Source: Marchantia polymorpha subsp. ruderalis
Taxonomy: Eukaryota; Streptophyta; Marchantiopsida; Marchantiales; Marchantiaceae
DNA length: 64,000 nucleotides
Direction: 5' to 3'
Assembly (NCBI GenBank): GCA_037833965.1
Contig: AP031356.1
Coordinates: 9,632,501 to 9,696,500 of the forward strand
Made by a program: the position numbers and the translations under genes. Position 1 is the stretch's first letter; each line of letters begins with the position of its first letter. Below the pieces are notes generated by a model, which was not told the DNA's origin, did not search any database, and worked only from the letters and a program-made list of their open reading frames with translations. Below, piece by piece: positions 18,295 through 47,978 of this stretch.

Positions 18295-18330
18295 CGTAGT
18301 GCAGTGTAGTGCTAGGTAGGACTTAGAAGG

Positions 18331-18340
18331 TATAAAATAG
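18331..18340 (+). promoter_or_regulatory. TATA box of LTR K
   Basis: TATAAAATAG lies 36 bp after the ORF stop and is followed at 18343-18359 by the perfect stem CCAGGC, loop GTTTT, stem GCCTGG. Transcription from here would begin R and run outward through U5. Confidence 0.7.
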
Positions 18341-21627: not shown

Positions 21628-21637
21628 CTATTTTATA
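21628..21637 (-). promoter_or_regulatory. TATA box of LTR L
   Basis: TATAAAATAG on the minus strand, followed by the CCAGGC/GCCTGG hairpin. Confidence 0.65.
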
Positions 21638-21673
21638 CCTTCTAAATCCTAACTAGCACTACACTGCACTACG

Positions 21674-24600: not shown

Positions 24601-24814
24601 CGCACCGCTCGGGTTTCTTTCTCTCTCGGCAAACTCTAATCGCCCTCAATTCCAAATCACGCGCACTCACTTCTCCCTCAATCAACAAGAAATCTCCTGT
24701 GCGATGACGTCGAGAATGTTTCGCAGCCAGCAGATGGATGCGCGCAGCGCGCTCAAGAGATTGGAATCGCGAATTCAAGAATGGGACGTTCTCCGCCGCC
24801 CGGTCGAAGGTCAT
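21674..24814 (-). pseudogene. LTR ORF of L, two nonsense codons
   Basis: The frame is conserved over its full length from ATG 24814 to the stop at 21674, apart from CAG-to-TAG (22670-22672, after VQPHSG) and TAC-to-TAA (22481-22483, after DRKVDK). The first stop is at the same glutamine codon that is also TAG in copy M. No indels break the frame, so decay is recent. The N-terminal 714 codons before the first stop are intact, including the globular and Pro/Arg-rich parts but not the coiled coil. Confidence 0.8.
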
Positions 24815-27243
24815 GGTCGGCTCTTGCTCGTGAAGAACGTCTCACTTGATGGCCGCGCCGGCTGTACGCTGGAACGGTCTTCGCTCTCACGCGCGGCTTC
24901 ACGCTCCGCCGTCGTCGATTAAACTCTCACGCTCGAATTGGCGGATTTGAACTCCGCGAGCGTATTACCCTGCGGACATGGGGGCGTAGCGCCGAAGGCG
25001 AGTTTTCCGCCTTGCGCGGTACACTTGTTCGTACCGCCCCTCGGCCAATCCCCCTCTGCCTTGACGCGTGTGTCCGCATGTCGGACAAAAGTTCAACTCC
25101 TGCCTGTGCGCAGGCAGGAGCCTCGGCGGATTCTCCGCCGGCACGGAACTTCATCCTCCTGTGCACAGGCGTTCGCCTGTGCGCAGGCGAATTCCGTGCG
25201 CTACGTCGCGCTGGCGCGGAAGGCGTTGACCGTGGTCAGCCGTCTCCGTCCAGTCTGTCCGTTCCTTGTCTCTTCGTCGGCGCTTCCGCCGCCGCAACTC
25301 CGTCCGTCCAAGAGCGCATCCACCCTTCCCGTCCGCATGGTCCGTACCGATTTGATTACTCTGGCGGCTCTTCCGACGTACGCGGCGCCGCGCTGGCGCG
25401 GAAGGCGCCGTACACTTTCTACCTCACAAGGCGCATTTATAGGGCCCAAGGCGGATTTTCCGCCGACGCCGAAGCGCCTGTGCACAGGCGAACGCCTGTG
25501 CGTAGGCGGACTTCGCGCCTCCCCTAACCCTACTTCGCCTGTGCACAGGCGAACGCCTTCGTCCGCGCATAGGACAAAACTTGATTCCCCCTTCCGCGTA
25601 GGCGGAATTCGCGCCGGTGGCGAACTCTTTCCGCCGTAGGCGACCGCCTCCGTTTCTTCCAATAGCGATAACTCCCTAAGTCCTCATCCGTCCCAAGCGT
25701 TCTTGGGCTCGTTGGAATCAGTGCGTCGAGCTCTTTCCAACGGGATCCTAACTTGGTCAAGGCGCCCGAGGGTTGACCTAATTATGGAGGGTTTCCCTAC
25801 AGCCGCGGACGCAACCTCCGAAGGGGGGTTTTGCGCCTTGCGCCGTAGAGATCCTAACTGCAGAGCTCGCAGGGAGGGTGGTGCCCGTCCTTACTGCTGC
25901 ACCCCAAATCCCAGATTCTACAAGATCCCTCGAGAATCCCCGCGATCTTCCGGATTCACTCTGTTTTGATGTACCGAAGGCTATTTACAATGCTGCCAGG
26001 GTACAGTTTTCCAAAAATGTTTTAATTTTCTCAAAATTGCCAAAAGTGGGGTACCACAGGATTGTCGAGTGACAACAGCGGAACTGAATACGCTCGGTCG
26101 CGGTTAAGCAACCCATCGACCGATAAAGGTTTATCAAGAAGGGGGAGAGATGATTGATCGTTACTCCCCTCTCCTCAAATGCATGCTGCCGCGTTACCCT
26201 ATGCAAGGTACGCGACCAGTGAACCGGAGCTCCGGCCAATGTGAGCTCCACGAAAGACACTTGCCAAGAAGTGTGTAATAACCCACTAAAGGCTTAAACT
26301 GCAATATAGTGGTAGAAAGGTCAAACCCACAGGGACAGAGGAACACACAGGGTACAAAGTGTCACGTTTAACAGACTATTGAGGAGTTTGAATTCTCAGG
26401 CGACTGTCACTCCCAGAAATACTGCAAGTGTCCACTCGGAGCGCACTCGGAGGTCGCACAGTGCAGCGTAACACACACACACACACACACACCTGAAACT
26501 ACAGAAACACAACCCAGAGATCCGTTAGAACCTCTACTCAAGATTTCAGGGGGAAAGTCTCTCAAGAGTACACTCAGCGAAGCTGCGGGTAGTGACTCCC
26601 AACTCCGGCTTTTACAACACTTCCACTAGCTTGCTGCTAGCGTAGGAAACCCGGTTTGGACTGCCTACTTTGGATCGAAGTCACTCATACGCGGTGAACA
26701 ACACTCTCAACTCACAAAACGCACAGAGAACACAGGTCTGCACTGAAGGACTCACTGAGGAACATTCCAGTAACACACCATAACAGTCTATTGAAGAGTT
26801 TGAATTCTTAGGCACTTGTCATTCCCAGAAATACTACAGGGATTACCCCAAAGGCACCTGCTGCAGCGTAACCGGAATTTACAACCAAGGCTTACACGAA
26901 GTAGCAAAACTTCACTTTGGCATTCAGGGGAAAAATCCCGAAGGGGTACAATCAGGAACGAACACTCGAAGGTGTAGGGGCGAAACTATTCAAGTATCTA
27001 ACTAGTATCACTGGCTCTGAGCATCGGCAATCACCCGTAGGTGTAGATCCGAACTACTCAAGTCTTTAACCAATGTACTAGCTCTGAACATTCGGCCTAA
27101 GGCCTTCAGCTACAAATTGCGGAACGCCAAGTTGTAGCTCCTCTTGCGTGGTGACAGAACTAAGGACACAAACACGTAGAGAAAATGAGTTCCTGATCTG
27201 CACTTCTGATGTTGGGAAAGATCCCAAGGCAAGACGCCTTGAA

Positions 27244-29412: not shown

Positions 29413-32400
29413 TCGTCTGCTCCACGAAAGACACTTGCCAAGAAGTGATGTATGTTGTTCGGTGCGGCAGCAAGAGTTGCAGAAGTGCCATCGCTACGTT
29501 TCTATGGAAGCGATCCTTGTAGTCACGGGTCCTGTACCCGTTCTTGTTGGACTTCTCCCTCTTGAACAAGTCCACGAAAGAGACGTCTTCCGCCTTCGTC
29601 ACCTTGACGCTCTCACTATCAAATAGGAGGAACCCGTCCTCGCTTGCACATCTCCCCAACACTTGTCCCCAATCTTGGACAGTCCAACGCTCTACGTGCG
29701 GTCGGAATCCGCGCGTAGGTTGGTGCCTCTCCCTTTGCCATTCGCGCATCATGTCCTGGCACACGTAATTCCATCCCCACAGCAGGAAATCGAGCTTCAC
29801 TGCAAACAACCGGTCTTGAAAAGCGCGCAACCCAATCTGCGGAAGCTTGAGCGGAATCATCCGCAGCTGAGTGGACCTCGACATCGCGTTCTTGGAATTT
29901 GATTTTGTGAACCTTCCTCCGCTACCCTCAAGCTTCTTGCTCACAACTTCGATTCTCCTGCAAACTCTAATCTCTCTCGATTCCGACTGTCGCGCACTCA
30001 ATTCTCTCTCTGTCACCGGGTGAGTCTCTGCGCGTTGGTGTCTGGAATTTCTCTCGGCTAGAAGGTGGACGCGCGCAGCTCGCACAAGAAATTGAAATCG
30101 CAAATTCAAGAATGAAGTGTCCGAACTCCGCTCGCAGGATGTCATGGTCGGCACTTGGTCGTGAGTGTCGACTCACTTGATGGCTTGTGGTAACACACTT
30201 TTTGTTTTTTTCGCAGAATTTAAACAATTTTGAAAAAGAAGTACCGAAGCAGTGTCTGTAGTTAGGAAATGGTACGTTAAATAGAGTGAAGTGAGGAGAT
30301 CGCGGGTCACGAAGAATCGCGGAGTTGGGCGTACATGCGCCAAACGCCTTCGGCGCCTTCGGCAAGATCTCCTTTGCTGAGGTGTCTTTACCCACGCGCC
30401 TCCAGCGCTTAGGGAAGGTACGCTTCCGGCACAGACACCTCCGGAGGAGATGTCGCTGAAGACGTCAGAAGCCGGCAAGGACCTCTAAATGCTTCAGACC
30501 ATGAGTGCGCCTTCGGCGATGCGCCGTTGGCGCGGGAGAGAAACCTTCATAACGATCAGGATTCACGGTAGTTCTAATTGGTTGAGGTTTCATTGAAAAG
30601 AGCTCGGGATGCTCGTTCTAACGAGCCCAAGAGCGCCGGAGATGGATCAGGGACAAGGAAGTTATGAGCGTCGGTAAACTCGCATCCGGCGATGCGCTGT
30701 TCGCGCTAGGGTTCACCGTCGGAAAGGATCCCCGTACGCCTTCGGCGGAACCTGTGTCCCGTAGGCGGATCTTCTGCCGGCTCCTTCCCCTTCCTATGTT
30801 GGAACGGGGGTGATTCCTGCCTGTGCACAGGCGGCACGTGTGGAGATGACCTGTGCACAGGCGGACTGCTTCTTCCCACACGTAGGCGTAGGTCCACGTC
30901 CGCTTGTGGTCGCCGATCCGTCGAGGCTCGCCTGTCCGTCGAGGCTCGCCTGTGCGCAGGCGGAACACCTGTCCGCAACGCACGTGGTAACTCCGGAGGC
31001 CCTTGGCCCTCTGGTACCCCACTTTTGGTAATTTTGAGGAAATTAAAACATTTTTGGAAAAAACTGTACCCTGGCAGCATTGTAAATAGCCTTCGGTACA
31101 TCAAAACAGAGTGAATCCGGAAGATCGCGGGCATTCTCGAGGGATCTTGTAGAATCTAGGATTTGTGGTGCAGCAGTAAGGATGGGCACCACGCTCCCTG
31201 CGAGCTCTGCAGTTAGGATCCCTGCGACGCAAGGCGCAAAACCCGCCTTCGGAGGTTGCGTTCGCGGCGGTGGGGAGATCCTTCATAATTAGGTCAACCC
31301 TTGGGCGCCTTGACCGAGTTAGGGTCTCGTTGGAAAGAGCTCAACGCACTGATTCCAACGAGTCCAAGAACGCTTGGAACGGATGAGGACTTAGGGAGTT
31401 ATCACTATTGGAAGATACGTAGACGTTCGCCTTCGGCGGAAGGAGTTCGCCACCGGCGGGAATTCCGCCTACGCGGAAGGGGGAATCAAGTTTTGTCCTA
31501 TGCGCGGACGAAGGAAGTTCGACTGTGCACAGGCGAAGTAGGGTTTGGGGAGGCGCGAAGTCCGCCTACGCACAGGCGTTCGCCTGTGCACAGGCGCTTC
31601 GGCGTCGGCGGAAAATCCGCCTTGGGCCCTAGAAATGCGCCTTGTGAGGTAGAAAGTGTACGGCGCCTTCCGCGCCAGCGCGGCGCCGCGGACGAGCAAG
31701 GAGCCGCCAGAGTAATCAAATCCGTACGGACCATGCGGACGGGACGGGTGGATGCGCTCTTGGACGGACGGAGTTGCGGCGGCGGAAGCGCCGACGAAGA
31801 GACAAGGAACGGACAGTCTGGACGGAGACGGCTGACCACGGTCAACGCCTTCCGCGCCAGCGCGACGCCGCGGACGGAATTCGCCTGCGCACAGGCGAGC
31901 GCCTGTGCACAAGAGGATGAAGTTCCGCGCCGGCGGAGAATCCGCCGAGGAGTCTGCCTGCGCACAGGCAGGAGTTGAACTTTTGTCCGACATGCGGACA
32001 CACGCGTCGAGGCAGAAGGGGATTGGCCGAGGGGCGGTACGAACAAGTGTACCGCGCAAGGCGGAAAACTCGCCTTCGGCGCTACGCTCCCATGTCCGCG
32101 GGGTAATACGCTCGCGGAGTTCAAATCCGCCAATTCGAGCCTGAGAGTTTAATCGGCGACGGCGGAGCGTGAAGCCGCGCGTGAGAGCGGAGACCGTTCC
32201 AGCGTAGAGCCGGCGCGGCCATCAAGTGAGACGTCCTCCACGAGCAAGAGCCGACCATGACCTTCGACCGGGCGGCGGAGAGCGTTCCATTCTTGAATTC
32301 GCGATTCCAATCTCTTGTGCGCGCTGCGCGCGTCCATCTGCTGGCTGCTAAACATTCTCGACGTCGCCACACAGGGGATTTCTTGGTGATTGAGGGAGAA

Positions 32401-35295
32401 GTGAGTGCGCGGGATTTGGAATTGAGGGCGATTAGAGTTTGCCGAGAGAGAAAGGAGCTCGAGCGGTGCGGAAGTAGAATGAGCGGGCGAGCGAACTCCA
32501 CGAATGACGAGACCGGGAACGCAATGACGAGACCGGGCAGATTGCGGATGGTGCCACTTCGCCTACCACAGAACGGGCTGCGCGCTTTCGAGGAGCGCTT
32601 AATAGCAAGAAAGCTCGATTTCTTGCTATGGGGATGGAACTACATCTGTGCGAATATGGTGCGCGAGTGGCTAGAGCCACAGGGACCACCCTCGCGCGGA
32701 TTGCGTCCGCATGTTGATCGGTGGACAGTCCAAGATTGGGCGCAGGCATTGGGAAGATGTGCCGGCATGCCAGGGCATCTCCTCTTCGACAGTGAGAGCA
32801 TCAAGGTGACCAAGCAGGAAGAGGCGCAATTTGTGGAGCTGTTCAAGACCGGGAGGTCTACCAAGAATGGGTACAGGACCCGTGATTACAAGGATCGATT
32901 TCGCCGGACTCTGTCCGCGGCGCTGATGCAATTACTGCAGCCACACCGCGCCTGCTACATCACATTGTGGCAGGTCTCTTTTGTGGAGTGCGTCATCGAG
33001 GGAACTCCAATTCACTGGGCGAGCATCCTGCACAGGGTGATGCGACAGCACGCTTTTGAGGAGAAGGGGGGGACTCTAAACCATCTCTCTCCTTTCCTCA
33101 TCAATTTTTATCGACAGCGGAATTGTTTGACAGCGGCGGAGCTTGAGCATTTTCCGCCGTTGTCCGTCGACCATCCCGGGAAGTATGTGCGGGAGAATGA
33201 GGTCGACACTGATGCAGAGGAGTCACCGACTTCTACCCCATCAAGGCGGAGGGACGAAGGGAGAAACACTCCTGCAGCACGAGTGCCGCGGAAGCGGCGA
33301 TGGAGAGAAGAGTCCGAAGAGGAGCAGCATCAAGAACCCTCTGCTCCAATTCGACCGCGGCCGTTGTACGAATCATACAGCCGGCCGAAGCAGAAGGCAC
33401 GCAGACTGGTGTTACCAGCCAACAGTGCGGACACGGCGACGATTGCGACGGAGAAAGGAAGTGCGTCGCCAGAGAAGCATGAGGAAGCGCGGACGACCGC
33501 AGGAGCAACGGACCACGCTGCAGCCTCGACGGGCGTGAGGCCGCCTACGGGCCAAGGGCCTCCGGAGTTACCACGTGCGTTGCGGACAGGTGTTCCGTTT
33601 GCGCACAGACGAGACTCCGCGGACGGACGAGCCTCCGCGGACAGACGATCACAAGTGGACGTAGATCTACGCTTACGCGTGGGAAGGAGCAGTCCGCCTG
33701 TGCACAGGTCACCTCCACACGTGCCGCCTGTGCACAGGCAGGAATCACCCCCGTTCCAACGTAGGAAGGGGAAGGAGCCGGCGGAAGAGCCGCCTACGAG
33801 ACACCGACCCTCGGGGCCAGACCCTCCGGCGCACCACGCGCCGCAATTTGCGCCTTCGGCGCCAGGGCCTTCGAGCCGAGGAGATACGAGCAGGGAGTGT
33901 GCGGAGGCCACACTATCGGCGGGTAATCCGCCGGTAGATGCGCCTACGGCGGTAGGGCCTTAGGGCCAAGGGACATCGGGCGAGCGGCCCCCGGCCATGT
34001 CGCCTTTGGCGATGGACGTCCGCGGCGCTACGCCTGCGGCGGACAAGGCGCCGGCATTTGCGCCTGCGCACAGGCCAAGCACAGCCCCCGCGGACCGATC
34101 AAGGGAGCAGCAACAGACGGAGGAGCGGAGTGACTGTCCGCGGGATGAAATTTCGATGCGCGATGCGCAATCAAACCCCGCGCAGCCACCCTCCGCTCGA
34201 TCGCCTTCAGCGGCGGGCGTCGGCGGCAGAGAGGACACGGTAGACGACCAACAAGCGAGCGGCGGGGATGCCGCACGGGCACATTCGCCTACCGCCTTAG
34301 ACATTTTGGCGAAGAGCAGCGAGGCTGTAGTGTAATAACCCACTAAAGGCTAAAACTGCAATATAGTGGTAGAAAGGTCGAACCCACAGGGACAGAGGAA
34401 CACACAGGGTACAAAGTGTCACGTTTAACAGACTATTGATGAGTTTGAATTCTCAGGCGACTGTCACTCCCAGAAATACTGCAAGTGTCCACTCGGAGCG
34501 CACTCGGAGGTCGCACAGTGCAGCGTAACACACACACACACACACACACACCTGAAACTACAGAAATACAACCCAGAGATCCGTTAGGACCTCTACTCAA
34601 GATTTCAGGGGGGAAGTCTCTCGCGAGCACACTCGGCAAAGCTGCGGGCAGTGACTTCCAACTCCGGCTTTTACAACACTTCCACTAGCTTGCTGCTAGT
34701 GTAGGAAACCCGGTTTGGACTGCCTACTTCGGATAGAAGTCACTCCTACGCGGTGAACAACACTCTCAACTCACAAAACGCGCAGAGAACACAGGTCCGC
34801 ACTGAAGGACTCACTGTGAAACATTCCAGTAACACAACAACAGTCTATTGAAGAGTTTGAATTCTCAGGCACTTGTCATTCCCAGAAATACTACAGGGGT
34901 TACCCTCAAGGCACCTGCTGCAGCGTAACCTGAATTTACAACCAAGGCTTACACGAAGTAGCAAAACTTCACTTTGGCATTCAGGGGAAAAATCCCAAGG
35001 AGTACAATCAGAAAGAAACACTCGAAGGTGTAGGGGCGAAACTGTTCAAGTATCTAACTAGTCACTGGCTCTGAGCATCGGCAGTCACCCGCAGGTGCAG
35101 ATCCGAACTACTCAAGTCTCTAACCAATGTACTAGCTCTGAACATTCGGCCGAAGGCCTTCAGCTACAAAATGCGGAACGCTAAGTTGTAACTCCTCGTG
35201 CGTGGTGACAGAACTCAAGGACACAAACACGCAAAGGAAATGGGTTCCTGATCTGCACTTCTGATGGGAAAGAACCCCAGGCAAAACGCCTGGAA

Positions 35296-35305
35296 CTATT
35301 TTATA
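35296..35305 (-). promoter_or_regulatory. TATA box of LTR I
   Basis: TATAAAATAG on the minus strand, 36 bp beyond the ORF stop, with the CCAGGC/GCCTGG hairpin following. Confidence 0.65.
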
Positions 35306-35341
35306 CCTTCTAAGTCCTACTTAACACTACACTGTACTACG

Positions 35342-38300
35342 CTACACGCCTGCACGGAACCACGCTACACTACACTCCGCGGAACCTGTACTTCGTCTCC
35401 TGCGCGGCCGACTGCCGCGCACTAACTCCCTACCCTGCCAATCCTCCGCTCGACTGCGCAGTCCCAACCGCTGCAACGCCGCGGACACCTCCCCCTCGAG
35501 GGCGGACATGGTATCCTGTGCCTTCGACAGAAAGGCTTCGAGCTTCTTTGCTACCTTCCGCCGACTCCTACTGTCGCCTGACAACAACCCGGCTGCGCGC
35601 AATTCAAACTCACGCAGTGTGAGTTTCTCCTGCGCCTTCACTTCCCAGTGGGCGTAGCCCTTGAGACAGTGGGCGACTCGCCTCGCCGTCTCCACCTTCG
35701 TGCGATCCGCCTCCTTCCTGCGATCCTCTTCAATTATCACTAATTGCGATTCGGCTTCAGCACGTTGCGCCCTCAATTCGCCACACTCTGACTGTAACCT
35801 GCGGATTAACTCTTCATCCGCCTGCCGTGCGAGCTGACATTGTTCCAACAACCGCGTCTGTCGCACGAGCTCCTCTGACAAAATCCGATTCTGGGCCTGC
35901 TCAGAGTTGAGTGCTTCCTTGACCTTCACCTGCTCCTTGGTGAGCTCGCCCAGTTTCTCATCCTTCATCTTCTCGGTGTGCTTGTAGAACTTCTGATTAA
36001 GCTTGTACTGACCCCACAAGCACGCATGCTTCTCCTTCAAGTCCTTCAACTCCTGGTCCACTCTAGCTAATAGCTTGCTGGTGTGGACTTTAGTGCGAGT
36101 CCGCCTGCGCACTAACTCGATGTAAGATCCCGGCTGGAGTGGGTCGGCGTATTTATCGACCTTGCGATCCAAGTACCGCAGCAACGGAATCACCTGCTCA
36201 GAGAGCGCCGCCGCCGGCGCTCCAACAATTTCCTCCTCCTCCTCCTCGGTGTCTTCTGCTCCTGACATTTCTTCCGTGGAGCCCCCGTCGTCATCATCCG
36301 AGTGGAGAATTTCAGTCGTCATTGATTGCGTCGGCGACTGCCCCGAGTGGGGCTGCACGTCATCGACGGGTGCTGCCTGCGAAGGCACGGCTGCAGCCTC
36401 GCTGCTCGTCGCCAAAATGTCTAAGGCGGAAGGCGAATGTACCCGAGCGGCATCCCCGTCGCTCGCTTGTTGATTGCCTACCGCGTTCTCTCTGTCGCCG
36501 TCGTCCGCCGCAGAAGGCGATCGAGCGGAGGGTGACTGCGCGGGGTTGGATTGCGCATCGCGCATCGAGATTTCATCCCGCGGACAGTCACTCCGCTCCT
36601 CCGTCTGCTGCTCCCTTGATCGGTCCGTGGGGGCTGTGCCCGGCCCATGCGCAGGCGCATTTGCCGGCGCCTTGTCCGCCGCAAGCGTAGCGCCGCGGAC
36701 ATCTATCGCCGAAGGCGACATGGCCGGGGGCCGCACGCCCGATGTTCCTTGGCCTATAGGCCCTACCGCCGAAGGCGCATCTATCGGCGGACTTCCCGCC
36801 GATGGTGCGGCCTCCGCACGCTCTCTGCTCGTATCTCCTCGGCTCGAAGGCCCTGGCGCCGAAGGCGCAAATTGCGGCGCGTGGTGCGCCGGAGGGTCTG
36901 GCCCCGAGGGCCGGTGTCTCGTAGGCGGTTCTTCCGCCGGCTCCTTCCCCTTCCTACGTTGGAACGGGGGTGATTCTTGCCTGTGCACAGGCGGCACGTG
37001 TGGAGGTGTCCTGTGCACAGGCGACCTGTGCACAGGTGAGCGCCTGTGCACAGGCGGACTGCTCCTTCCCACGCGTAAGCGTAGATCCACGTCCACTTGT
37101 GTTCGCCGGTCCGCGGAGGCTCGTCCGTCCGCGGAGGTTCGCCTGTGCGCAAGCGGAACATCTGTCCGCATCGCACGTGGTAACTCCGGAGGCCCTCGGC
37201 CCGTAGGCGGCCTCTCTCCCGACGAGGTTGCAGCGTGGCCCGTTGCTCCTGCGGTCGTCCGCGCTTCCTCTCGCCTCTCTGGCGACGCACTTCCCAGCTC
37301 CGTCGCAATCGTCGCCGTGTCTGCACTGTCAGCTGGCAACACCAGTCTGCGTGCCTTCTGCTTCGGCCGGCTGTATGGCTCGCACAGCGGCCGCGGTCGA
37401 ATGGGAGCAGAGGGTTCTTGATGCTGCTCCTCTTCGGACTCTTCCCTCCATCGCCGCTTCCGCGGCACTCGCGCTGCAGGAGTGTGTCTCCCTTCGTCCC
37501 TCCGTCTTGATGGGGTCGAAGTCGGTGACTCCTCTGCATCAGTATCGACCTCGTTCTCCCGCACATACTTTCCGGGATGGTCGATGGACAATGGCGGAAA
37601 ATGTTCAAGCTCCGCCGCCGTCAAACAATTCCGCTGTCGATAAAAATTGATGAGGAAAGGAGAAAGATGGTTTAGAGTTCCCCCCTTCTCCTCAAACGCG
37701 TGCTGTCGCATCACCCTGTGCAGGATGCTCGCCCAGTGAATTGGAGTTCCCTCGATGACGCACTCCACAAAAGAGACCTGCCACAATGTGATGTAGCAGG
37801 CGCGGTGCGGCTGCAGTAATTGCATCAGCGCCGCGGACAAAGTCCGGCGAAATCGATCCTTGTAATCACGGGTCCTGTACCCATTCTTGGTTGACCTCCC
37901 GGTCTTGAACAGCTCCACAAATTGCGCCTCTTCTTGCTTGGTCACCTTGATGCTCTCACTGTCGAAAAGGAGATGCCCTGGCATGCCAGCACATCTTCCC
38001 AACGCCTGCGCCCAATCTTGGACTGTCCACCGATCAACATGCGGACGCAATCCGCGCGAGGGTGGTCCCTGTGGCTCTAGCCACTCGCGCACCATATTCG
38101 CACAGATGTAATTCCATCCCCATAGCAAGAAATCGAGCTTTCTTGCTATTAAGCGCTCCTCGAAAGCGTGCAGCCCGTTCTGCGGCAGGCGAAGTGGCAC
38201 CATCCGCAATCTGCTTGGTCTCGTCATTGCGTTCCTGGGGTTCGCTCGCCCGCTCATCCTACTTCCGCACTGCCCGCGTTTCTTTCTCTCTCGGCAAACT

Positions 38301-38479
38301 CTAATCGCTCTCAATTCCAAATCTCGCGCACTCACTTCTCCCTCAATCAACAAGAAATCTCCTGTGCGACGACGTCGAGAGTGTTCCGCAGCCAGCAGAT
38401 GGATGCGCGCAGCGCGCACAAGAGATTGGAATCGCGAATTCAAGAATGGGACGTTCTCCGCCGCCCGGTCGAAGGTCAT
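35342..38479 (-). CDS. LTR-encoded protein, 1045 aa, intact (copy I)
   Basis: This second fully open copy has the same length and domain order as in LTR1. Residues 112-123 are ARKLDFLLWGWN, 159-165 ALGRCAG, 205-212 DYKDRFRR and 269-277 LNHLSPFLI. The basic region RPKQKARR follows at about 380, then the repeat-rich middle, the acidic patch and Glu run near 730, LLRYLDRKVDKYA, a coiled coil, and the tail motifs LREFELRAAG and EDWQGRELVRGS. No transmembrane segment or signal peptide is apparent. Two independent intact copies among many broken ones suggest the protein-coding form is what transposes. The biochemical function is unknown. Confidence 0.8.
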   Translation of the reverse strand: MTFDRAAENVPFLNSRFQSLVRAARIHLLAAEHSRRRRTGDFLLIEGEVSARDLELRAIRVCRERKKRGQCGSRMSGRANPRNAMTRPSRLRMVPLRLPQNGLHAFEERLIARKLDFLLWGWNYICANMVREWLEPQGPPSRGLRPHVDRWTVQDWAQALGRCAGMPGHLLFDSESIKVTKQEEAQFVELFKTGRSTKNGYRTRDYKDRFRRTLSAALMQLLQPHRACYITLWQVSFVECVIEGTPIHWASILHRVMRQHAFEEKGGTLNHLSPFLINFYRQRNCLTAAELEHFPPLSIDHPGKYVRENEVDTDAEESPTSTPSRRRDEGRHTPAARVPRKRRWREESEEEQHQEPSAPIRPRPLCEPYSRPKQKARRLVLPADSADTATIATELGSASPERREEARTTAGATGHAATSSGERPPTGRGPPELPRAMRTDVPLAHRRTSADGRASADRRTQVDVDLRLRVGRSSPPVHRRSPVHRSPVHRTPPHVPPVHRQESPPFQRRKGKEPAEEPPTRHRPSGPDPPAHHAPQFAPSAPGPSSRGDTSRERAEAAPSAGSPPIDAPSAVGPIGQGTSGVRPPAMSPSAIDVRGATLAADKAPANAPAHGPGTAPTDRSREQQTEERSDCPRDEISMRDAQSNPAQSPSARSPSAADDGDRENAVGNQQASDGDAARVHSPSALDILATSSEAAAVPSQAAPVDDVQPHSGQSPTQSMTTEILHSDDDDGGSTEEMSGAEDTEEEEEEIVGAPAAALSEQVIPLLRYLDRKVDKYADPLQPGSYIELVRRRTRTKVHTSKLLARVDQELKDLKEKHACLWGQYKLNQKFYKHTEKMKDEKLGELTKEQVKVKEALNSEQAQNRILSEELVRQTRLLEQCQLARQADEELIRRLQSECGELRAQRAEAESQLVIIEEDRRKEADRTKVETARRVAHCLKGYAHWEVKAQEKLTLREFELRAAGLLSGDSRSRRKVAKKLEAFLSKAQDTMSALEGEVSAALQRLGLRSRAEDWQGRELVRGSRPRRRRSTGSAECSVAWFRAGV

Positions 38480-40812
38480 GGTCGGCTCTTGGTCGTGAAG
38501 AACGTCTCACTTGATGGCCGCGCCGGCTGTACGTTGGAACGGTCTTCGCTCTCACGCGCGGCTTCACGCTCCGCCGTCGTCGATTAAACTCTCACGCTTG
38601 AATTGGCGGATTTGAACTCCGCGAGCGTGTCACCCTGCGGACATGGGGGCGTAGCGCCGAAGGCGAGTTTTCCGCCTTGCGCGGTACACTTGTTCGTACC
38701 GTCCCTCGGCCAATCTCCTTCTGCCTTGACGCGTGTGTCCGCATGTCGGACAAAAATTCAACTCCTGCCTGTGCGCAGGCAGGAGCCTCGGCGGATCCTC
38801 CGCCGGTGCGGAACTTCATCCTCCTGTGCACAGGCGTTCGCCTGTGCGCAGGCGAATTCCGTCCGCGGCGCTGCGCTGGCGCGGAAGGCGTTGACCGTGG
38901 TCAGCCGTCTCCGTCCAGTCTGTCCGTTCCTTGTCTCTCCGTCGGCGCTCCCGCCGCCGCAACTCCGTCCGTCCAAGAGCGCATCCACCCGTGCCGTCCG
39001 CATGGTCCGTACCGATTGGATTACTCTGGCGGCTCCTCCGACGTACGCGGCGCTGCGCTGGCGCGGAAGGCGCCGTACACTTTCTACCTCACAAGGCGCA
39101 TTTCTAGGGCCCAAGGCGGATTTTCCGCCGACGCCGAAGTGCCTGTGCACAGGCGAACGCCTGTGCGTAGGCGGACTTCGCGCCTTCCCTAACCCTACTT
39201 CGCCTGTGCACAGGCGAACGCCTTCGTCCGCGCATAGGACAAAACTTGATTCCCCCTTCCGTGTAGGCGGAATTCGCGCCGGTGGCGAACTCCTTCCGCC
39301 GTAGGCGACCGCCTCCGTTTCTTCCAGTGGCGATAACTCCCTAAGTCCTCGTCCGTTCCAAGCGTTCTTGGGTTCGTTGGAATCAGTGCGTCGAGCTCTT
39401 TCCAACGGGATCCTAACTTGGTCAAGGCGCCCGAGGGTTGACCTAATTACGGGGGTTTCCCTACAGCCGCGGACGCAACCTCCGAAGGCGGGTTTTGCGC
39501 CTTGCGCCGTAGAGATCCTAACTGCAGAGCTCGCAGGGAGGGTGGTGCCTGTCCTTACTGCGGCACCCCAAATCCCAGATTCTACAAGATCCCTCGAGAA
39601 TCCCCGCGATCTTCCGGATTCACTCTGTTTTGATGTACCGGAGGCTATTTACAATGCTGCCAGGGTACAGTTTTCCAAAAATGTTTTAATTTCCTCAAAA
39701 TTGCCAAAAGTGGGGTACCACATGCAGCCGTGCCTTCGCAGGCAGCACACGTCGACGACGTGCAGCCCCATTCGGGTCAGTCGCCGACGCAATCAATGGC
39801 GACTGAAATTCTCCACTCGGATGATGACGACGGAGGCTCCACCGAAGAAATGTCAGGAGCAGGGGACACCGAGGAGGAGGAGGAGGAAATTGTTGGAGCG
39901 CCGGCGGCGGCGCTCTCTGAGCAAGTGATTCCGTTGCTGAGGTACTTGGATCGCAAAGTCGATAAATACGCCGACCCACTTCAGCCGGGATCTTACATCG
40001 AGTTAGTGCGCAGGCGGACTCGCACTAAAGTCCACACCAGCAAGCTATTAGCTAGAGTGGACCAGGAGTTGAGGGAATTGAAGGAGAAGCATGAATGCTT
40101 GTGGGGTCAGTATAAACTTAATCAGAAATTCTACAAGTACTCCGAGAAGGTGAGGGATGGGAAACTGGAAGAGCTCACCAAGGAGCAGGTGAAGGTCACA
40201 GAAGCACTAATTTCTGAGCAGGCCCAGAATCGGATTTTGTCAGAGGAGCTCGTGCGACAGACGCGGTTGTTGGAACAATGTCAGCTCGCACGGCAGGCGG
40301 ATGAGGAGGTAATCCGCAGGCTACAGTCAGAGTGTGGCGAATTGAGAGCGCAACGTGCTGAGGCCGAATCGCAATTAGTGACAGTTGAAGAGGATCGCAG
40401 GAAGGAGGCAGATCGCACAAAGGTCGAGACGGCGAGGCGTGTCGCCCACTGTCTCAAGGGCTACGCCCACTGGGAAGTGAAGGCGCAGGAGAAACTCACA
40501 CTGCGTGAGTTTGAACTTCGCGCAGCCGGGTTGTTGTCAGGCGACAGTAGGAGTCGGCGGAAGGTAGCAAAGAAGCTCGATGCTTTTCTGTCGAAGGCGC
40601 AGGATACCATGTCCGCTCTCGAAGTGGAGGTGTCCGCGGCGTTGCAGCGATTGGGACTGCGCAGTCGAGCGGAAGACTGGCAGGGTAGGGAGCTAGTGCG
40701 CGGCAGTCCGCCGCGCAGGAGACGTAGCACAGGTTCCGCGGAGTGTAGTGTAGCGTGGTTCCGTGCAAGCGTGTAGCGTAGTGCAGTGTAGTGCTAGTTA
40801 GGACTTAGAAGG

Positions 40813-40822
40813 TATAAAATAG
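40813..40822 (+). promoter_or_regulatory. TATA box of LTR F
   Basis: TATAAAATAG after the ORF stop, followed by the CCAGGCGTTTTGCCTGG hairpin. Confidence 0.65.
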
Positions 40823-43800
40823 TTCCAGGCGTTTTGCCTGGGTTCTTTCCCATCAGAAGTGCAGATCAGGAACCCATTTCCTTTGCGTGTTTGTGTCCTT
40901 GAGCTCTGTCACCACGCACGAGGAGTTACAACTTAGCGCTCCGCATTTTGTAGCTGAAGGCCTGCGGCCGAATGTTCAGAGCTAGTACATTGGTTAGAGA
41001 CTTGAGTAGTTCGGATCTACACCTACGGGTGATTGCCGATGCTCAGAGCCAGTGACTAGTTAGATACTTGAACAGTTTCGCCCCTACACCTTCGAGTGTT
41101 TCTTTCTGATTGTACTCCTTTGGGATTTTTCCCCTGAATGCCAAAGTGAAGTTTTGCTACTTCGTGTAAGCCTTGGTTGTAAATTCAGGTTACGCTGCAG
41201 CAGGTGCCTTGAGGGTAACCCCTGTAGTATTTCTGGGAATGACAAGTGCCTGAGAATTCAAACTCTTCAATAGACTGTTGTTGTGTTACTGGAATGTTTC
41301 TCAGTGAGTCCTTCAGTGCGGACCCGTGTTCTCTGCGCGTTTTGTGAGTTGAGAGTGTTGTTCACCGCGTAGGAGTGACTTTGATCCGAAGTAGGCAGTC
41401 CAAACCGGGTTTCCTACACTAGCAGCAAGCTAGTGGAAGTGTTGTAAAAGCCGGAGTTGGGAGTCACTGCCCGCAGCTTTGCCGAGTGTGCTCGCGAGAG
41501 ACTTTTCCCCCCTGAAATCTTGAGTAGAGGTCCTAACGGATCTCTGGATTGTGTTTCTGTAGTTTCAGGTGTGTGTGTGTGTGTGTTACGCTGCATTGTG
41601 CGACCTCCGAGTGCGCTCCGAGTGGACACTTGCAGTATTTCTCGGAGTGACAGTCGCTTGAGAATTCAAACTCATCAATAGTCTGTTAAACGTGACACTT
41701 TGTACCCTGTGTGTTCCTCTGTCCCTGTGGGTTCGACCTTTCTACCACTATATTGCAGTTTTAGCCTTTAGTGGGTTATTAGAGGCCCGTAGGCGGCCTC
41801 TCGTCCGTCGAAGGTGCAGCGGGGTCCGTTGCTCCTGCAGACGTCCGCGCTCCCTCGTTCTTCTCTGGCGACGCACTTCCTTTCTCTGTGGCAATCGTCG
41901 CCGTGTCCGCGCTGCTGGCTGGTAACACCAGCCTGCGCGCCTTCTGCTTCGGCCGGCTGTACGATTCGTACAACGGCCGCGGTCGAATGGGAGCAGTGGG
42001 TTCTTGATGCTGCTCCTCTTCGGACTCTTCTCTCCATCGCCGCTTCCGCGGCACTCTTGCTGCAGGAGTATTTCTCCCTTCGTCCCTCCGCCTTGACGGA
42101 GTAGAAGTCGGCGACTCCTCTGCATCAGTGTCGACCTCATTCTCCCGCACATACCTCCCGAGATGGTCGACGGACAACGGCGGAAAACGAGCAAGCTCCG
42201 CCGCGGTCAAACAATTTCGCTGTCGATAAAAATTGATGAGGAAAGGAGAGAGATGATTTAGAGTTCCTCCCTTCTCCTCAAAAGCGTGCTGTCGCATCAC
42301 CCTGTGCAGGATGCTCGCCCAGTGAATTGGAGTTCCCTCGATGATGCACTCCACAAAAGAGACCTGCCACAATGTGATGTAGCAGGCGCGGTGCGGCTGC
42401 AGTAATTGCAGCAGCGCCGTAGCCAAAGTTCGGCGGAATCGATCCTTGTAATCGCGGGTCTTGTACCCATTCTTGGTAGACTTTCCCTTCTTGAACAGCT
42501 CCACAAATTGCGCCTCTTCCTGCTTGGTCACCTTGACGCTCTCACTATCGAAGAGGAGGTGCCCTGGCATGCCGGCACATCTTCCCAATGCCTGCGCCCA
42601 ATCTTGGACCGTCCATCGATCAACATTCGGCCGCAATCCGCGCGTAGGTGGACCCTGTGGCTCTAGCCACTCGCGCACCATATCCACACAGATGTAGTTC
42701 CATCCACATAGCAAGAAATCGAGCTTTCTTGCTATCAGGCGCTCCTCGAAAGCGCGCAGCCCGTTCTGTGGTAGTCGGAGTGGCAGCATCCGCAACCGGC
42801 CCAGTCTCGTCATTGCGTTCTTGGAGTTTGCCTGCTTGCTAATTCTCCTTCCGCTCCGCTCGAGCTCCCTTCTCCCTCGGCAAACTCTAATCGGCCTCAA
42901 TTCCAAATCACGAGCACTCACTTCTCCCTCAATCACCAAGAAATCCTCTGCGCGGCGATGTCGAGAATGCTTAGCAACTAGCAGATGGACGCGCGCAGCT
43001 CGCACTAGAGAATGGAATCGCGAATTCAAGAATGGGACGCTCTCCGCCTCCCGGTCGAAGGTCATGGTCGGCTCTTGCTCGTGAAGGACGACTCAATTGA
43101 TGGCCGCGCCGGCTCTACGCTAAAACGGTCTCCGCTCTCACGCGCGGCTTCACGCTCCGCCGTCGCCGATTAAGCTCTCACGCTCGAATTGGCGAATTTG
43201 AACTCCGCGAGCGTACTACGCCGCGGATACGGGTGCGCAGCGCCGAAGGCGGATTTTCCGCCTTGCGCGGTACACTCGTTTGTACCGCTCCTCAGCCAAT
43301 CCTCCTCTGCCTCGGCGCGTGTGTCCGCATGTCGGACAAAAGTTCAACTCCCGCCTGCGCGCAGGCGGACTCCTCGGCGGATTCTCCGCCGGCGCGGAAC
43401 TTCACCCTCCTGTGCACAGGCGAGCGCCTGTGCGCAGGCGAAGTCCGTCCGCGTCGATGCGCTGGCGCGGAAGGCGTTGACCGCGGTCAACCGACTCCGT
43501 CCAGGCTGTCCGTTCCTTGTCTCTCCGTCGGCGCTCTCGCCGCCGCAACTCCGTCCGTCCAAGAGCGCATCCATCCGTCCCGTCCGTACGGTCCGTACGG
43601 ATTTTACTATTCTGGCGGCTCCTTGCTCGTCCGCGGCGTTGCGCTGGCGCAGAAGGCGCCGTACAATTTCTACCTCACAAGGCGCATTTCTAGGGCCCAA
43701 GGCGGATTTCCCGCCGATGCCGAAGCGCCTGTGCACAGGGGCACGCCTGTGCGTAGGCGAACTTCGCGCCTACATCAAAACCCTATTTTGCTTGTGCGTA

Positions 43801-44784
43801 GGCGAACTTCGTTCGTCCGCGCTGTAATAACCCACTAAAGGCTAAAACTGCAATATAGTGGTAGAAAGGTCGAACCCACAGGGACAGAGGAACACACAGG
43901 GTACAAAGTGTCACGTTTTAACAGACTATTGAGGAGTTTGAATTCTCAGGCAACTGTCACTCCCAGAAATACTGCAAGTGTCCACTCGGAGCGCACTCGG
44001 AGGTCGCACAGTGCAGCGTAACACACACACACACACCTGAAACTACAGAAACACAACCCAGAGATCCGTTAGGACCTCTACTCAAGATTTCAGGGGGGAA
44101 GTCTCTCGCGAGCACACTCAGCGAAGCTGCGGGCAGTGGCTTCCAACTCCGGCTTTTACAACACTTCCACTAGCTTGCTGCTAGTGTAGGAAACCCGGTT
44201 TGGACTGCCTACTTCGGATCGAAGTCACTCCTACGCGGTGAACAACACTCTCAACTCACAAAACGCGCAGAGAACACAGGTCCGCACTGAAGGACTCACT
44301 GTGAAACATTCCAGTAACACAACAACAGTCTATTGAAGAGTTTGAATTCTCAGGCACTTGTCATTCCCAGAAATACTACAGGGGTTACCCTCAAGGCACC
44401 TGCTGCAGCGTAACCTGAATTTACAACCAAGGCTTACACGAAGTGGCAAAACTTCACTTTGGCATTCAGGGGAAAAATCCCAAGGGAGTACAATCAGAAA
44501 GAAACACTCGAAGGTGTAGGGGCGAAACTGTTCAAGTATCTAACTAGTCACTGGCTCTGAGCATCGGCAGTCACCCGCAGGTGCAGATCCGAACTACTCA
44601 AGTCTCTAACCAATGTACTAGCTCTGAACATTCGGCCGAAGGCCTTCAGCTACAAAATGCGGAACGCTAAGTTGTAACTCCTCGTGCGTGGTGACAGAAC
44701 TCAAGGACACAAACACGCAAAGGAAATGGGTTCCTGATCTATACTTCTGAGTTTGGGAAAGAACCCCAGGCAAAACGCCTGGAA

Positions 44785-44794
44785 CTATTTTATA
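44785..44794 (-). promoter_or_regulatory. TATA box of LTR H
   Basis: TATAAAATAG on the minus strand followed by the CCAGGC/GCCTGG hairpin. Confidence 0.65.
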
Positions 44795-44830
44795 CCTTCT
44801 AAGTCCTAACTAGCACTACACTGCACTACG

Positions 44831-47800
44831 CTACACGCCTGCACGGAACCACGCTACACTACACTCCGCGGAACCTGTACTACGTCTCCTGCGCGGCCGA
44901 CTGCCGCGCACTAACTCTCTACCCTGCCAATCTTCCACTCGACTGCGCAGTCCCAAACGCTGCAACGCCGCGGACACCTCCACTTCGAGGGCGGACATGG
45001 TATCCTGTGCCTTCGACAGAAAGGCATCGAGCTTCTTTGCTACCTTCCGCCGACTCCTACTGTCGCCTGACAACAACCCGGCTGCGCGTAATTCAAACTC
45101 ACGCAGTGTGAGTTTCTCCTGCGCCTTCACTTCCCAGTGGGCGTAGCCCTTGAGACAGTGGGCGACACGCCTCGCCGTCTCCACCTTCGTGCGATCCGCC
45201 TCCTTCCTGCGATCCTCTTCAATTATCACTAATTGCGATTCGGCTTCAGCACGTTGCGCTCTCAATTCGCCACACTCTGACTGTAACCTGCGGATTAACT
45301 CTTCATCCGCCTGCCGTGCGAGCTGACATTGTTCCAACAACCGCGTCTGTCGCACGAGCTCCTCTGACAAAATCCGATTCTGGGTCTGCTCAGAAATGAG
45401 TGCTTCCTTGACCTTCACCTGCTCCTTGGTGAGCTCGTCCAGTTTCTCATCCTTCATCTTCTCGGAGTGCTTGTAGAATTTATGATTAAGCTTATACTGA
45501 CCCCACAAGCATGCATGCTTCTCCTTCAATTCCCTCAACTCCTGGTCCACTCTAGCTAATAGCTTGCTGGTGTGGACTTTAGTGCGAGTCCGCCTGCGCA
45601 CTAACTCGATGTAAGATCCCGGCTGGAGTGGGTCGGCGTATTTATCGACCTTGCGATCCAAGTACCTCAGCAACGGAATCACCTGCTCAGAGAGCGCCGC
45701 CGCCGGCGCTCCAACAATTTCCTCCTCCTCCTCCTCGGTGTCTTCTGCTCCTGACATTTCTTCCGTGGAGCCTCCGTCGTCATCATCCGAGTGGAGAATT
45801 TCAGTCGCCATTGATTGCGTCGGCGACTGCCCCGAGTGGGGCTGCACGTCATCGACGTGTGCTGCCTGCGAAGGCACGGCTGCAGCCTCGCTGCTCGTCG
45901 CCAAAATGTCTAAGGCGGAAGGCGAATGTACCCGTGCGGCATCCCCGTCGCTCGCTTGTTGGTTGTCTACCGCGTCCTCTCTGCCGCCGTCGCCCGCCGC
46001 CGAAGGCGATCGAGCGGAGGGTGGCTGCGCGGGGTTTGATTGCGCATCGCGCATCGAAATTTCATCCCGCGGACAGTCACTCCGCTCCTCCGTCTGTTGC
46101 TGCTCCCTTGATCGGTCCGTGGGGGCTGTGCCCGGCCCGTGCGCAGGCGCAATTGCCGGCGCCTTGTCCGCCGCAGGCGTAGCGCCGCGGACATCCATCG
46201 CCGAAGGCGACATGGCCGGGGGCCGCTCGCCCGATGTCCCTTGGCCTATAGGCCCTACCGCCGAAGGCGCATCTATCGGCGGACTTCCCGCCGATGGTGC
46301 GGCCTCCGCACGCTCCCTGCTCGTATCTCCTCGGCTCGAAGGCCCTGGCGCCGAAGGCGCGAATTGCGGCGCGTGGTGCGCCGGAGGGTCTGGCCCCGAG
46401 GGCCGGTGTCTCGTAGGCGGTTCTTCCGCCGGCTCCTTCCCCTTCCTACGTTGGAACGGGGGTGATTCTTGCCTGTGCACAGGCGGCACGTGTGGAGGTG
46501 TCCTGTGCACAGGCGACCTGTGCACAGGTGAGCGCCTGTGCACAGGCGGACTGCTCCTTCCCACGCGTAAGCGTAGATCCACGTCCACTTGTGATCGCCT
46601 GTCCGCGGAGGCTCGTCCGTCCGCGGAGGTTCGCCTGTGCGCAAACGGAACATCTGTCCGCATCGCACGTGGTAACTCCGGAGGCCCTTGGCCCGTAGGC
46701 GGCCTCTCTCCCGTCGAGGTTGCAGCGTGGCCCGTTGCTCCTGCGGTCGTCCGCGCTTCCTCATGCTTCTCTGGCGACGCACTTCCTTTCTCCGTCGCAA
46801 TCGTCGCCGTGTCCGCACTGTCGGCTGGTAACACCAGTCTGCGTGCCTTCTGCTTCGGCCGGCTGTATGACTCGCACAGCGGCCGCGGTCGAATGGGAGC
46901 AGAGGGTTCTTGATGCTGCTCCTCTTCAGACTCTTCCCTCCATCGCCGCTTCCGCGGCACTCGCGCTGCAGGAGTGTGTCTCCCTTCGTCCCTTCGCCTT
47001 GATGGGGTAGAAGTCGGTGACATCAGTGTCCTCTGCATCAGTGTCGACCTCATTCTCCCGCACATACTTCCCGGGATGGTCGATGGACAATGGCGGAAAA
47101 TGTTCAAGCTCCGCCGCTGTCAAACAATTCCGCTGTCGATAAAAATTGATGAGGAAAGGAGAAAGATGGTTTAGAGTCCCCCCCTTCTCCTCAAACGTGT
47201 GCTGTCGCATCACCCTGTGCAGGATGCTCGCCCAGTGAACTGGAGTTCCCTCGATGACGCACTCCACAAAAGAGACCTGCCACAATGTGATGTAGCAGGC
47301 GCGGTGCGGCTGCAGTAATTGCATCAGCGCCGCGGACAAAGTCCGGCGAAATCGATCCTTGTAATCACGGGTCCTGTACCCATTCTTGGTAGACCTCCCG
47401 GTCTTGAACAGCTCCACAAATTGCGCCTCTTCCTGCTTGGTCACCTTGATGCTCTCACTGTCGAAAAGGAGATGCCCTGGCATGCCAGCACATCTTCCCA
47501 ACGCCTGCGCCCAATCTTGGACTGTCCACCGATCAACATGCGGACACAATCCGCGCGAGGGTGGTCCCTGTGGCTCTAGCCACTCGCGCACCATATTCGC
47601 ACAGATGTAGTTCCATCCCCATAGCAAGAAATCGAGCTTTCTTGCTATTAAGCGCTCCTCGAAAGCGCGCAGCCCGTTCTGTGGTAGGCGAAGTGGCACC
47701 ATCCGCAATCTGCTCGGTCTCGTCATTGCGTTCCTGGGGTTCGTTCGCCCGCTCATTCTACTTCCGCACCGCCCGAGCTTCTTTCTCTCTCGGCAAACTC

Positions 47801-47978
47801 TAATCGCCCTCAATTCCAAATCACGCGCATTCACTTCTCCCTCAATCAACAAGAAATCTCCTGTGCGACGACGTCGAGAATGTTCCGCAGCCAGCAGATG
47901 GATGCGCGCAGCGCGCACAAGAGATTGGAATCGCGAATTCAAGAATGGGACGTTCTCCGCCGCCCGGTCGAAGGTCAT
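44831..47978 (-). pseudogene. LTR ORF of H, one frameshift
   Basis: The ATG at 47978 opens a frame through the globular domain to VDTDAE. There a 7-bp insertion (an extra ATCAGTG, apparently a local duplication, about 47020-47027) shifts the frame. The downstream frame is open from the same point to the normal stop at 44831. The damage sits at the same domain boundary as the K nonsense codon. Apart from this one event both halves are intact and match LTR1 closely. Confidence 0.75.

What the first reader, a model, noticed from the sequence alone, without database searches (positions are those of the whole stretch)
34331..39722. Giant 5.4-kb LTR that carries its own ~1045-codon protein gene
Seen: at least six complete units of 5.38-5.41 kb (LTR1, F, I, H, K, L) with TG...CA-type ends (F has TC...GA), 5-bp target duplications, a TATA box about 1 kb before the 3' end, and a sense ORF filling most of the part before the TATA. 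Known: solo LTRs have exactly this terminal structure. Tat/Ogre-type elements can have LTRs of several kb, and a protein gene inside U3 is known in a retrovirus (mouse mammary tumour virus sag). Inferred: this family has placed a large, conserved, non-gag/pol gene in U3, so every replication cycle duplicates it and every solo LTR keeps it as a stand-alone gene. I know of no described plant family with this arrangement.
Basis: partly seen in the sequence, partly recalled or inferred. Interest (0 to 1): 0.95.

Follow-up and report, generated by a model that had tools for sequence, protein, structure and literature searches.

The report
Retrotransposon with gene inside its LTRs
A very abundant jumping element in a plant genome, probably a liverwort, carries a large and selectively conserved protein gene inside its repeated ends, so each new copy gets the gene twice and leftover single ends can still keep it.

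Summary
The 5.4-kb unit at 34331-39722 (element sense is the minus strand) is a genuine LTR of a Ty3/Gypsy retrotransposon in a 241-Mb, 9-contig genome, very probably Marchantia polymorpha or a close relative. The six complete units in the window stand alone as solo LTRs with 5-bp target duplications (five exact, one 4/5). Elsewhere in the genome the same unit flanks gag-protease-RT-RNaseH-integrase in direct orientation. I found two complete elements with matching TSDs; in one, the two LTRs differ at 7 of 5406 sites. The primer-binding site matches tRNA-Asp, but starts 22-23 nt after the LTR, not directly after it. A polypurine tract precedes the 3' LTR, and pol stops 37 nt before it. The 1045-codon ORF lies wholly in U3, upstream of the LTR's TATA box. 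It is under purifying selection and is also inside the LTR in divergent families of the same genome. It has no significant domain or fold match, no transmembrane segment, and no named homologue outside Marchantia among the candidates scored. I rate this a new variant of a known kind: an accessory gene caught in U3. How the ORF is expressed and what it does are inferred.

The parts
34331..39722 (-). Complete solo LTR (5392 bp); element sense is the minus strand, TGTGGTACC...GGGTTATTACA
   Evidence: TSD TGTAG/TGCAG, 4/5; inserted into an older copy whose halves overlap at unit positions 2061-2065
35342..38479 (-). 1045-codon ORF in U3 (unit positions 1244-4381): basic N-terminal part with a helical domain, Pro/Ala/Arg/Ser-rich middle, acidic patch, basic Leu/Arg/Glu-rich C-terminal part
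   Evidence: purifying selection
38480..39722 (-). U3 upstream of the ORF (1243 bp), rich in short palindromes; candidate region for an ORF promoter
   Evidence: promoter role inferred
35300..35305 (-). TATAAA box, 37 bp after the ORF stop; presumed promoter of the genomic RNA
   Evidence: role inferred
34331..35275 (-). presumed R-U5, about 0.95 kb
   Evidence: inferred from the TATA position
744..6134 (-). Solo LTR, intact 1045-codon ORF (1751-4888), TSD CATTG/CATTG
13895..19304 (+). Solo LTR, ORF broken, TSD CCCTG/CCCTG
20661..26058 (-). Solo LTR, ORF broken, TSD GGATT/GGATT
31010..41783 (+). Older solo LTR with TC...GA ends, split by the unit at 34331-39722; TSD GGCCC/GGCCC
43823..49222 (-). 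Solo LTR, ORF broken, TSD CGCGC/CGCGC
49286..49674 (-). Truncated start of a 3' LTR preceded by the polypurine tract AGGAGGGGAGCA
50021..52978 (+). Fragment of the element interior (part of gag-protease and the start of pol), 90.9% identical to the C4 element; contains the zinc-knuckle ORF 50306-51667
59541..64000 (+). Solo LTR of a divergent family (B), 4856 bp in all, continuing 396 bp past the window end (L035); TSD AGCGG/AGCGG; open 851-codon homologue of the ORF (60898-63453) in the same position

Best explanation
The unit is the LTR of a Ty3/Gypsy retrotransposon in which no chromodomain or second RNase H was found. Its order is LTR (U3 with ORF, R, U5) - spacer - tRNA-Asp PBS - gag-PR - pol (RT-RH-INT) - PPT - LTR. 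The ORF sits where many plant elements have an extra 3' gene, downstream of pol and in the same sense, but the polypurine tract lies between pol and the ORF instead of after it. Plus-strand synthesis therefore starts upstream of the ORF, so the gene becomes part of U3 and is copied into both LTRs in every replication cycle. LTR-LTR recombination then leaves solo LTRs that can still hold the gene. Shown: LTR identity, PBS, PPT, gag-pol, ORF position, selection, and the same position in divergent families. Inferred: that the PPT position created the arrangement; that the ORF is transcribed from the 1.24 kb of U3 before it (a spliced genomic RNA is the alternative) and ends in R-U5 of the same LTR; and that the protein (basic helical domain, probably disordered middle, basic tail, no membrane segment) is a nuclear or regulatory accessory factor acting in trans for the element, perhaps on RNA, chromatin or silencing, rather than an envelope.
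For: LTR: the two LTRs of the C3 element are identical at 5399/5406 sites with no gaps; the C4 pair has 9 differences in 4218 aligned sites of the part compared, plus 296 gap columns in 4 events; the other copies compared differ from each other by 1.3-2.8%. TSDs 5/5: C3, C4, nested solo C7:4790993-4796385, solo C4:20688108-20693496, family B solo. Junctions: LTR end plus interior start at 1371 places (<=2 mismatches, control 0). PBS TGGCGCCGCTGCCGGGGA pairs 18/18 with the tRNA-Asp (gtc) 3' end if CCA follows the discriminator G that the acceptor stem implies. PPT GAGGAGGGGGGCA before the 3' LTR; pol stops 37 nt before the LTR in both elements. Pfam: Retrotrans_gag, CCHC, RVT_1, RT_RNaseH, Integrase_H2C2, rve. 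ORF selection: shared substitutions at codon positions 1/2/3 were 14/20/62; mutation-spectrum-corrected missense/synonymous ratio 0.31 for shared and 0.40 for singleton changes, no stops among shared against 2.2 expected; dN/dS 0.22-0.27 against five divergent pieces with dS 0.43-1.37. Of the 44 best-scoring genome copies, 39 have no stop in 1045 codons (chosen as best, so biased). The ORF lies inside the LTR in family B and L036, and downstream of the same LTR start in L034.
Against: No expression data were available. No TATA box was seen upstream of the ORF. Many copies are broken: four of the six window units lack an intact ORF, and singleton stops are at the neutral rate (5 against 6.0 expected), so copies after insertion show no sign of selection as host genes. 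The middle of the protein is less constrained (pN/pS 0.57-0.64). No outgroup with the ORF between pol and PPT was found or systematically sought, so PPT relocation is a proposal. The protein has no significant domain or fold match, so its function is open. The PBS spacer of 22-23 nt is longer than the 5 bp of the Athila-type elements Diaspora and Calypso (passages of PMC1142308) and is unexplained. ARAGORN ends the tRNA one base further than I do. A published count of only 222 full-length LTR elements in M. polymorpha ruderalis (passage of PMC9985172) is far below the 1353 LTR-interior junctions here, so many junctions may belong to broken elements or the published annotation may miss them.
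Confidence: 0.85

Rival explanations
1. The unit is a DNA transposon or other TIR element with its own large gene, and its association with gag-pol is accidental nesting.
For: Short TGT...ACA ends, the complete window units stand alone, one unknown ORF per unit.
Against: 1371 LTR-interior junctions with control 0; paired units in direct orientation with matching TSDs at the outer ends and near-identical sequence; tRNA-Asp PBS and a PPT at the inner junctions.
Confidence: 0.01
2. The ORF is a passenger: a captured host gene or fragment that stays open only because copies are young and the LTR is GC-rich.
For: No domain, orphan protein, many broken copies; the named hits are gene models from one subspecies.
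Against: Third-position excess among shared substitutions, corrected ratio 0.31; homologues at dS 0.43-1.37 with dN/dS 0.22-0.27; the same U3 position in divergent families.
Confidence: 0.06
3. The ORF is an envelope-like gene of the Athila type that happens to lie in U3.
For: Sense orientation, position after pol, tRNA-Asp PBS and domain set like Athila-type elements.
Against: No strongly hydrophobic 19-residue stretch (maximum mean Kyte-Doolittle 1.14); no Pfam match to ATHILA or any env model.
Confidence: 0.1
4. Solo LTRs have been domesticated: some stand-alone copies are host genes under selection.
For: Two solo LTRs in the window keep the full ORF; thousands of LTR ends not followed by the interior.
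Against: Singleton stops at the neutral rate; conserved syntenic copies were not tested for.
Confidence: 0.05

Closest known systems
Athila / OTA non-chromovirus Ty3/Gypsy elements (Athila, Calypso, Cyclops, Diaspora)
   Same: Ty3/Gypsy domain order; for Diaspora and Calypso a tRNA-Asp PBS, for Diaspora also long LTRs and pol ending close to the PPT (128 bp) (PMC1142308 passages). Neumann et al. separate chromoviruses by their chromodomain and Tat by a second RNase H; neither was found here (PMC6317226, passages and one section)
   Different: The extra ORFs described for plant LTR elements lie in the internal region, mostly between pol and the 3' LTR; here the ORF is within U3. PBS 22-23 nt from the LTR, not 5.
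Extra 3' ORFs of plant LTR elements (Grande gene23, Retand ORF, RIRE2, env-like ORFs)
   Same: Accessory gene after pol, present in most copies of a family, function unknown (review PMC7264820, parts 1-2 of 3 read)
   Different: Those are internal and so present once per element; the Grande, RIRE2 and Retand ones are antisense. Here the gene is sense and in both LTRs. No Transposase_28, plant mobile domain or Athila ORF-1 match.
Mouse mammary tumour virus sag (recalled; also nef overlapping U3 in lentiviruses, recalled)
   Same: Protein gene in U3 downstream of the PPT
   Different: Different host kingdom; here the gene is far larger and the LTR about four times as long (MMTV sizes recalled). 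The proteins were not compared.
Cassandra and LARD elements (recalled)
   Same: LTRs that carry a transcribed gene (Cassandra 5S RNA) or are very long (LARD)
   Different: Those are non-autonomous and carry no protein gene in the LTR (recalled); here the element has gag-pol.

Membership tests
LTR retrotransposon | Two direct LTRs, near-identical within an element, bounded by a TSD | tested here: met
   C3 pair 5399/5406 identical, TSD AGCGG/AGCGG; C4 TSD AAACC/AAACC
LTR retrotransposon | PBS complementary to a tRNA 3' end | tested here: met
   18/18 to tRNA-Asp (gtc) with CCA after the discriminator G implied by the acceptor stem; ARAGORN's end is one base further; 22-23 nt from the LTR
LTR retrotransposon | Polypurine tract next to the 3' LTR | tested here: met
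   GAGGAGGGGGGCA|TGTGG in C3 and C4
Ty3/Gypsy | gag, PR, then RT-RH before INT | tested here: met
   the protease match is weak (E 0.00014, just under the curated cut-off)
Athila (OTA) | No chromodomain and no additional RNase H | tested here: met
   Pfam scan of the whole 946-aa pol frame of the C3 element shows neither
Athila (OTA) | RT/RH/INT phylogeny places it in the clade | not tested
   No labelled reference proteins were at hand
Athila (OTA) | ATHILA ORF-1 or env-like 3' ORF in the internal region (a frequent feature of the group, not universal) | tested here: not met
   No Pfam match; pol stops 37 nt before the LTR. So it is not filed as Athila
MMTV-type U3 gene | Complete protein gene between the PPT and the LTR TATA box | tested here: met
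   ORF at unit positions 1244-4381, TATA at 4418
MMTV-type U3 gene | Expressed product with a role in spread | not testable with these tools
   no expression data

The most novel reading that the evidence does not exclude
A retrotransposon lineage has turned its LTR into a self-contained gene cassette: the U3 gene is made from its own promoter, so solo LTRs keep supplying the protein in trans and recombination does not remove the accessory function but multiplies it. The element would then depend on a genome-wide pool of solo-LTR genes, and a usual route by which retrotransposons are disarmed (solo LTR formation) would fail to remove this function.
Probability: 0.25. Interest if true: 0.88.

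Novelty: new variant of a known kind. Interest (0 to 1): 0.74.

Why it matters
LTRs are usually treated as regulatory DNA, and an element that collapses to a solo LTR is taken to lose its genes. Here a selected gene of more than 1000 codons is in the LTR of a highly repeated element and stays there through divergent families. It offers a natural test of whether solo LTRs can act as genes, of how a shift of the polypurine tract could reshape an element, and of what an accessory protein of plant retrotransposons does. It also shows how such genes can be under-described: in the protein database every hit with a name (4 of 4, 50 of 59; the other 9 unnamed) is a hypothetical or uncharacterised gene model, or in one case is also named for a fused integrase, from one Marchantia polymorpha subspecies.

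Tried and rejected

Self-priming: no stretch of 8 or more of the reverse complement of the 24 nt after the LTR occurs in the LTR, and the tRNA-Asp PBS explains priming. Gag duplication: ORF against gag gave a best match at E 0.067 in low-complexity sequence. Two groups looked like elements by spacing but are not simple ones: on C2 a 19,051-bp tandem repeat, each unit with one interior and one LTR interrupted by about 7.9 kb; on C4 a solo LTR (TSD CTCTA) 16 kb from the complete element (TSD AAACC).

A pattern search for TGG just after the LTR end (346 places, control 13; 100 listed) showed varied sequence that reads like target DNA, not a PBS. A first tRNA pattern contained one base too many and found nothing; the corrected one worked.

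Literature: the listings showed no plant element described as having a protein gene inside the LTR. Most listed papers were not opened. In one search the phrase 'LTR contains an ORF' occurred in one paper, a review on MMTV (PMC9412291, listing only). Subscription papers and preprints are mostly not held, so this is not proof of absence. Passages only were seen of PMC12885004, PMC11963269, PMC1142308 and PMC9985172.
Full report
What is there. The window is part of contig C7 of a genome of 241,466,482 bases in 9 contigs. The unit at 34331-39722 is one of six related, complete 5.4-kb units in the window. The unit asked about is inserted in the TC...GA unit, whose two halves overlap by five bases.

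It is an LTR. Twenty stretches of 10 kb around copies elsewhere in the genome were read, chosen from 40 scored matches out of 2975 first-look candidates. Many unit ends are followed by the same sequence, TAAGAAGCCGACAACT, and several unit starts are preceded by AGGAGGGGGGCA. The combined LTR-interior junction occurs 1371 times (<=2 mismatches; reversed control 0). Two complete elements were found: C3:11258236-11274843 (LTRs 5406 bp each, interior 5796 bp, TSD AGCGG on both sides) and C4:20704093-20720429 (interior 5797 bp, TSD AAACC on both sides). The C3 LTRs differ at 7 of 5406 sites. The C4 LTRs differ at 9 of 4218 aligned sites of the part compared, with 296 gap columns in 4 events, mostly a deletion in the 3' LTR. 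The other copies compared differ from each other by 1.3-2.8%. This within-element identity is the hallmark of LTRs.

The interior. In the C4 copy, a 943-codon frame with Retrotrans_gag, CCHC knuckles and a weak aspartyl protease match is followed by a frame with RVT_1, RNase H, Integrase_H2C2 and rve. The whole pol frame of the C3 copy (946 aa) shows no chromodomain and no second RNase H in Pfam. Pol stops 37 nt before the 3' LTR in both elements, and the polypurine tract lies in that gap. The PBS TGGCGCCGCTGCCGGGGA starts after a spacer of 22 nt (C3) or 23 nt (C4). A tRNA T-arm/acceptor pattern found 29 exact and 4 one-mismatch places; ARAGORN calls tRNA-Asp (gtc) at both of the two places examined. 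Reading those two sequences, the acceptor stem GTCGTTG pairs with CAGCGGC, leaving G as discriminator; with CCA added the 3' end is the exact complement of the PBS. ARAGORN ends the gene one base further, so the 18/18 match rests on that pairing. The spacer holds a short inverted repeat (AAGAAG...CTTCTT), seen directly.

The ORF. It runs from unit position 1244 to 4381. The only TATA(A/T)A in the unit is at 4418, so in the usual retroviral layout the ORF is entirely in U3 and R-U5 is about 0.95 kb. Ten copies were compared with the unit; substitutions seen in two or more of them fall 14/20/62 on codon positions 1/2/3, singletons 39/29/69. The two C3 LTRs are one element and both were in that count, which makes C3 changes look shared; the C4 3' LTR and a partial copy in hand were left out. 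With the C3 3' LTR dropped (10 copies including the unit) and a correction for CpG and transition bias, the missense/synonymous ratio is 0.31 of neutral for shared (25 missense, 36 synonymous) and 0.40 for singleton changes (77, 88); stops are 0 against 2.2 expected (shared) and 5 against 6.0 (singleton). This fits selection in the replicating lineage and decay after insertion. Against divergent relatives, dN/dS is 0.27 (27265-28245, dS 0.43), 0.25 (57809-58969, dS 1.25), 0.22 (29315-30145, dS 1.37), and 0.23 and 0.22 for the C-terminal part of L036 and L034 (dS 0.79, 1.00); L036 against L034 gives 0.43. Family B and 53004-54539 are at or near saturation at synonymous sites; there the N- and C-terminal parts (pN/pS 0.36-0.43) are more constrained than the middle (0.57-0.64). 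Of the 44 best genome copies, 39 have no stop and 5 have one (13689 first-look candidates, 44 scored), so this list is biased to good copies.

Not a quirk of one family. Family B is a complete solo LTR of 4856 bp that starts at window 59541 and ends 396 bp past the window, with TSD AGCGG/AGCGG and an open 851-codon homologue at 60898-63453. In L036 the match to the unit runs from unit position 3 (at 264) to the LTR end (5172) and encloses pieces of the ORF. In L034 the LTR start (1484) lies about 1.06 kb before the first open piece of the ORF; the end of that LTR is cut by another copy. So the U3 location predates the split of families that differ at up to half of their amino acids (A against B 50% identity).

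Copy numbers. The exact 13-nt LTR 3' end occurs 5966 times (reversed control 37), and the same end followed by TAAG, the interior start, 1353 times (control 5). If each of these has a matching 3' LTR, about 3260 ends are left for solo or broken copies. This is a rough figure: it ignores mutated ends and tandem arrays. A published count for M. polymorpha ruderalis is only 222 full-length LTR elements (passage of PMC9985172); many junctions here may therefore belong to broken elements, or that annotation may have missed elements with such LTRs.

The protein. N-terminal part (1-330) pI 9.9, middle rich in Pro, Ala, Arg and Ser with PVHR-type repeats, an acidic patch (pI 4.1), and a basic Leu/Arg/Glu-rich C-terminal part; the maximum 19-residue hydropathy is 1.14, so there is no convincing transmembrane segment. 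No significant Pfam, PDB or fold match. Named homologues are all Marchantia polymorpha subsp. ruderalis gene models: 4 of 4 hits, and 50 of 59, the other 9 being unnamed; each search scored only the 7990 or 7993 candidates that share most words, so distant relatives could be missed. One hit (P0056) is a model that fuses an integrase part to part of the ORF's N-terminal domain; this is the order expected for pol followed by a U3 gene, but it is a computer prediction, not evidence of splicing.

How it most likely works. Plus-strand DNA is primed at the PPT, and everything downstream of it becomes U3. A gene placed after pol but downstream of the PPT is therefore copied into both LTRs. The extra ORFs of described plant elements are placed in the internal region, most often between pol and the 3' LTR (review PMC7264820, parts 1-2 of 3 read; PMC6317226, passages and one section). 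The simplest origin is that a new PPT arose, or an old one shifted, upstream of such a gene; no outgroup was at hand to test this. Expression from the U3 stretch before the ORF would make every solo LTR with an intact frame a complete gene; a spliced genomic RNA is the alternative. The lack of a membrane segment argues against an envelope; the basic and helical parts suggest a nucleic-acid or chromatin-related accessory role. This last step is inference.

Known or new. LTRs of about 5 kb are known (PMC6317226 says up to about 5 kb; PMC1142308 cites Ogre at over 5,000 bp). Extra genes after pol are known. U3 genes are known in MMTV (recalled). The combination - a large selected sense gene wholly inside the LTR of an abundant plant Ty3/Gypsy element - did not show in the listings. 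I call it a new variant of a known kind.

Noticed in passing
C3:10615793-10641359; C4:20818876-20855608; C2:31351106-31384682: Evenly spaced runs of ORF copies (C3 three, C4 four) or LTR-interior junctions (C2 four) about 11.2 kb apart, the length of one LTR plus one interior, suggesting LTR-interior-LTR-interior tandem arrays.
   Followed up: no
unit positions about 500-900 and 2570-3070 (window about 38823-39223 and 36653-37153, minus strand): Short palindromes such as CTGTGCACAG and near-palindromic CGCCTTCGGC are scattered both in non-coding U3 and in the ORF; perfect short inverted repeats are 3.3 and 2.4 times a first-order Markov expectation there, against 1.2 in R-U5 and 1.4 in the interior.
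   Followed up: partly
L024:7642-7663 and L035:2835-2856: A 22-nt spacer with a 6-bp inverted repeat between LTR end and PBS, found with the same length in a divergent copy; how integrase would process such a DNA end is unclear.
   Followed up: partly
L035:2835-5249: A possible non-autonomous derivative: about 0.5-kb interior with PBS and PPT and a 1.9-kb 3' LTR that lacks most of the ORF; the LTR to its left shares only stretches of the R-U5 part.
   Followed up: partly
C2:29860001-29910000: A tandem repeat with a period of 19,051 bp; each unit holds one interior and one LTR interrupted at the same place by about 7.9 kb.
   Followed up: no
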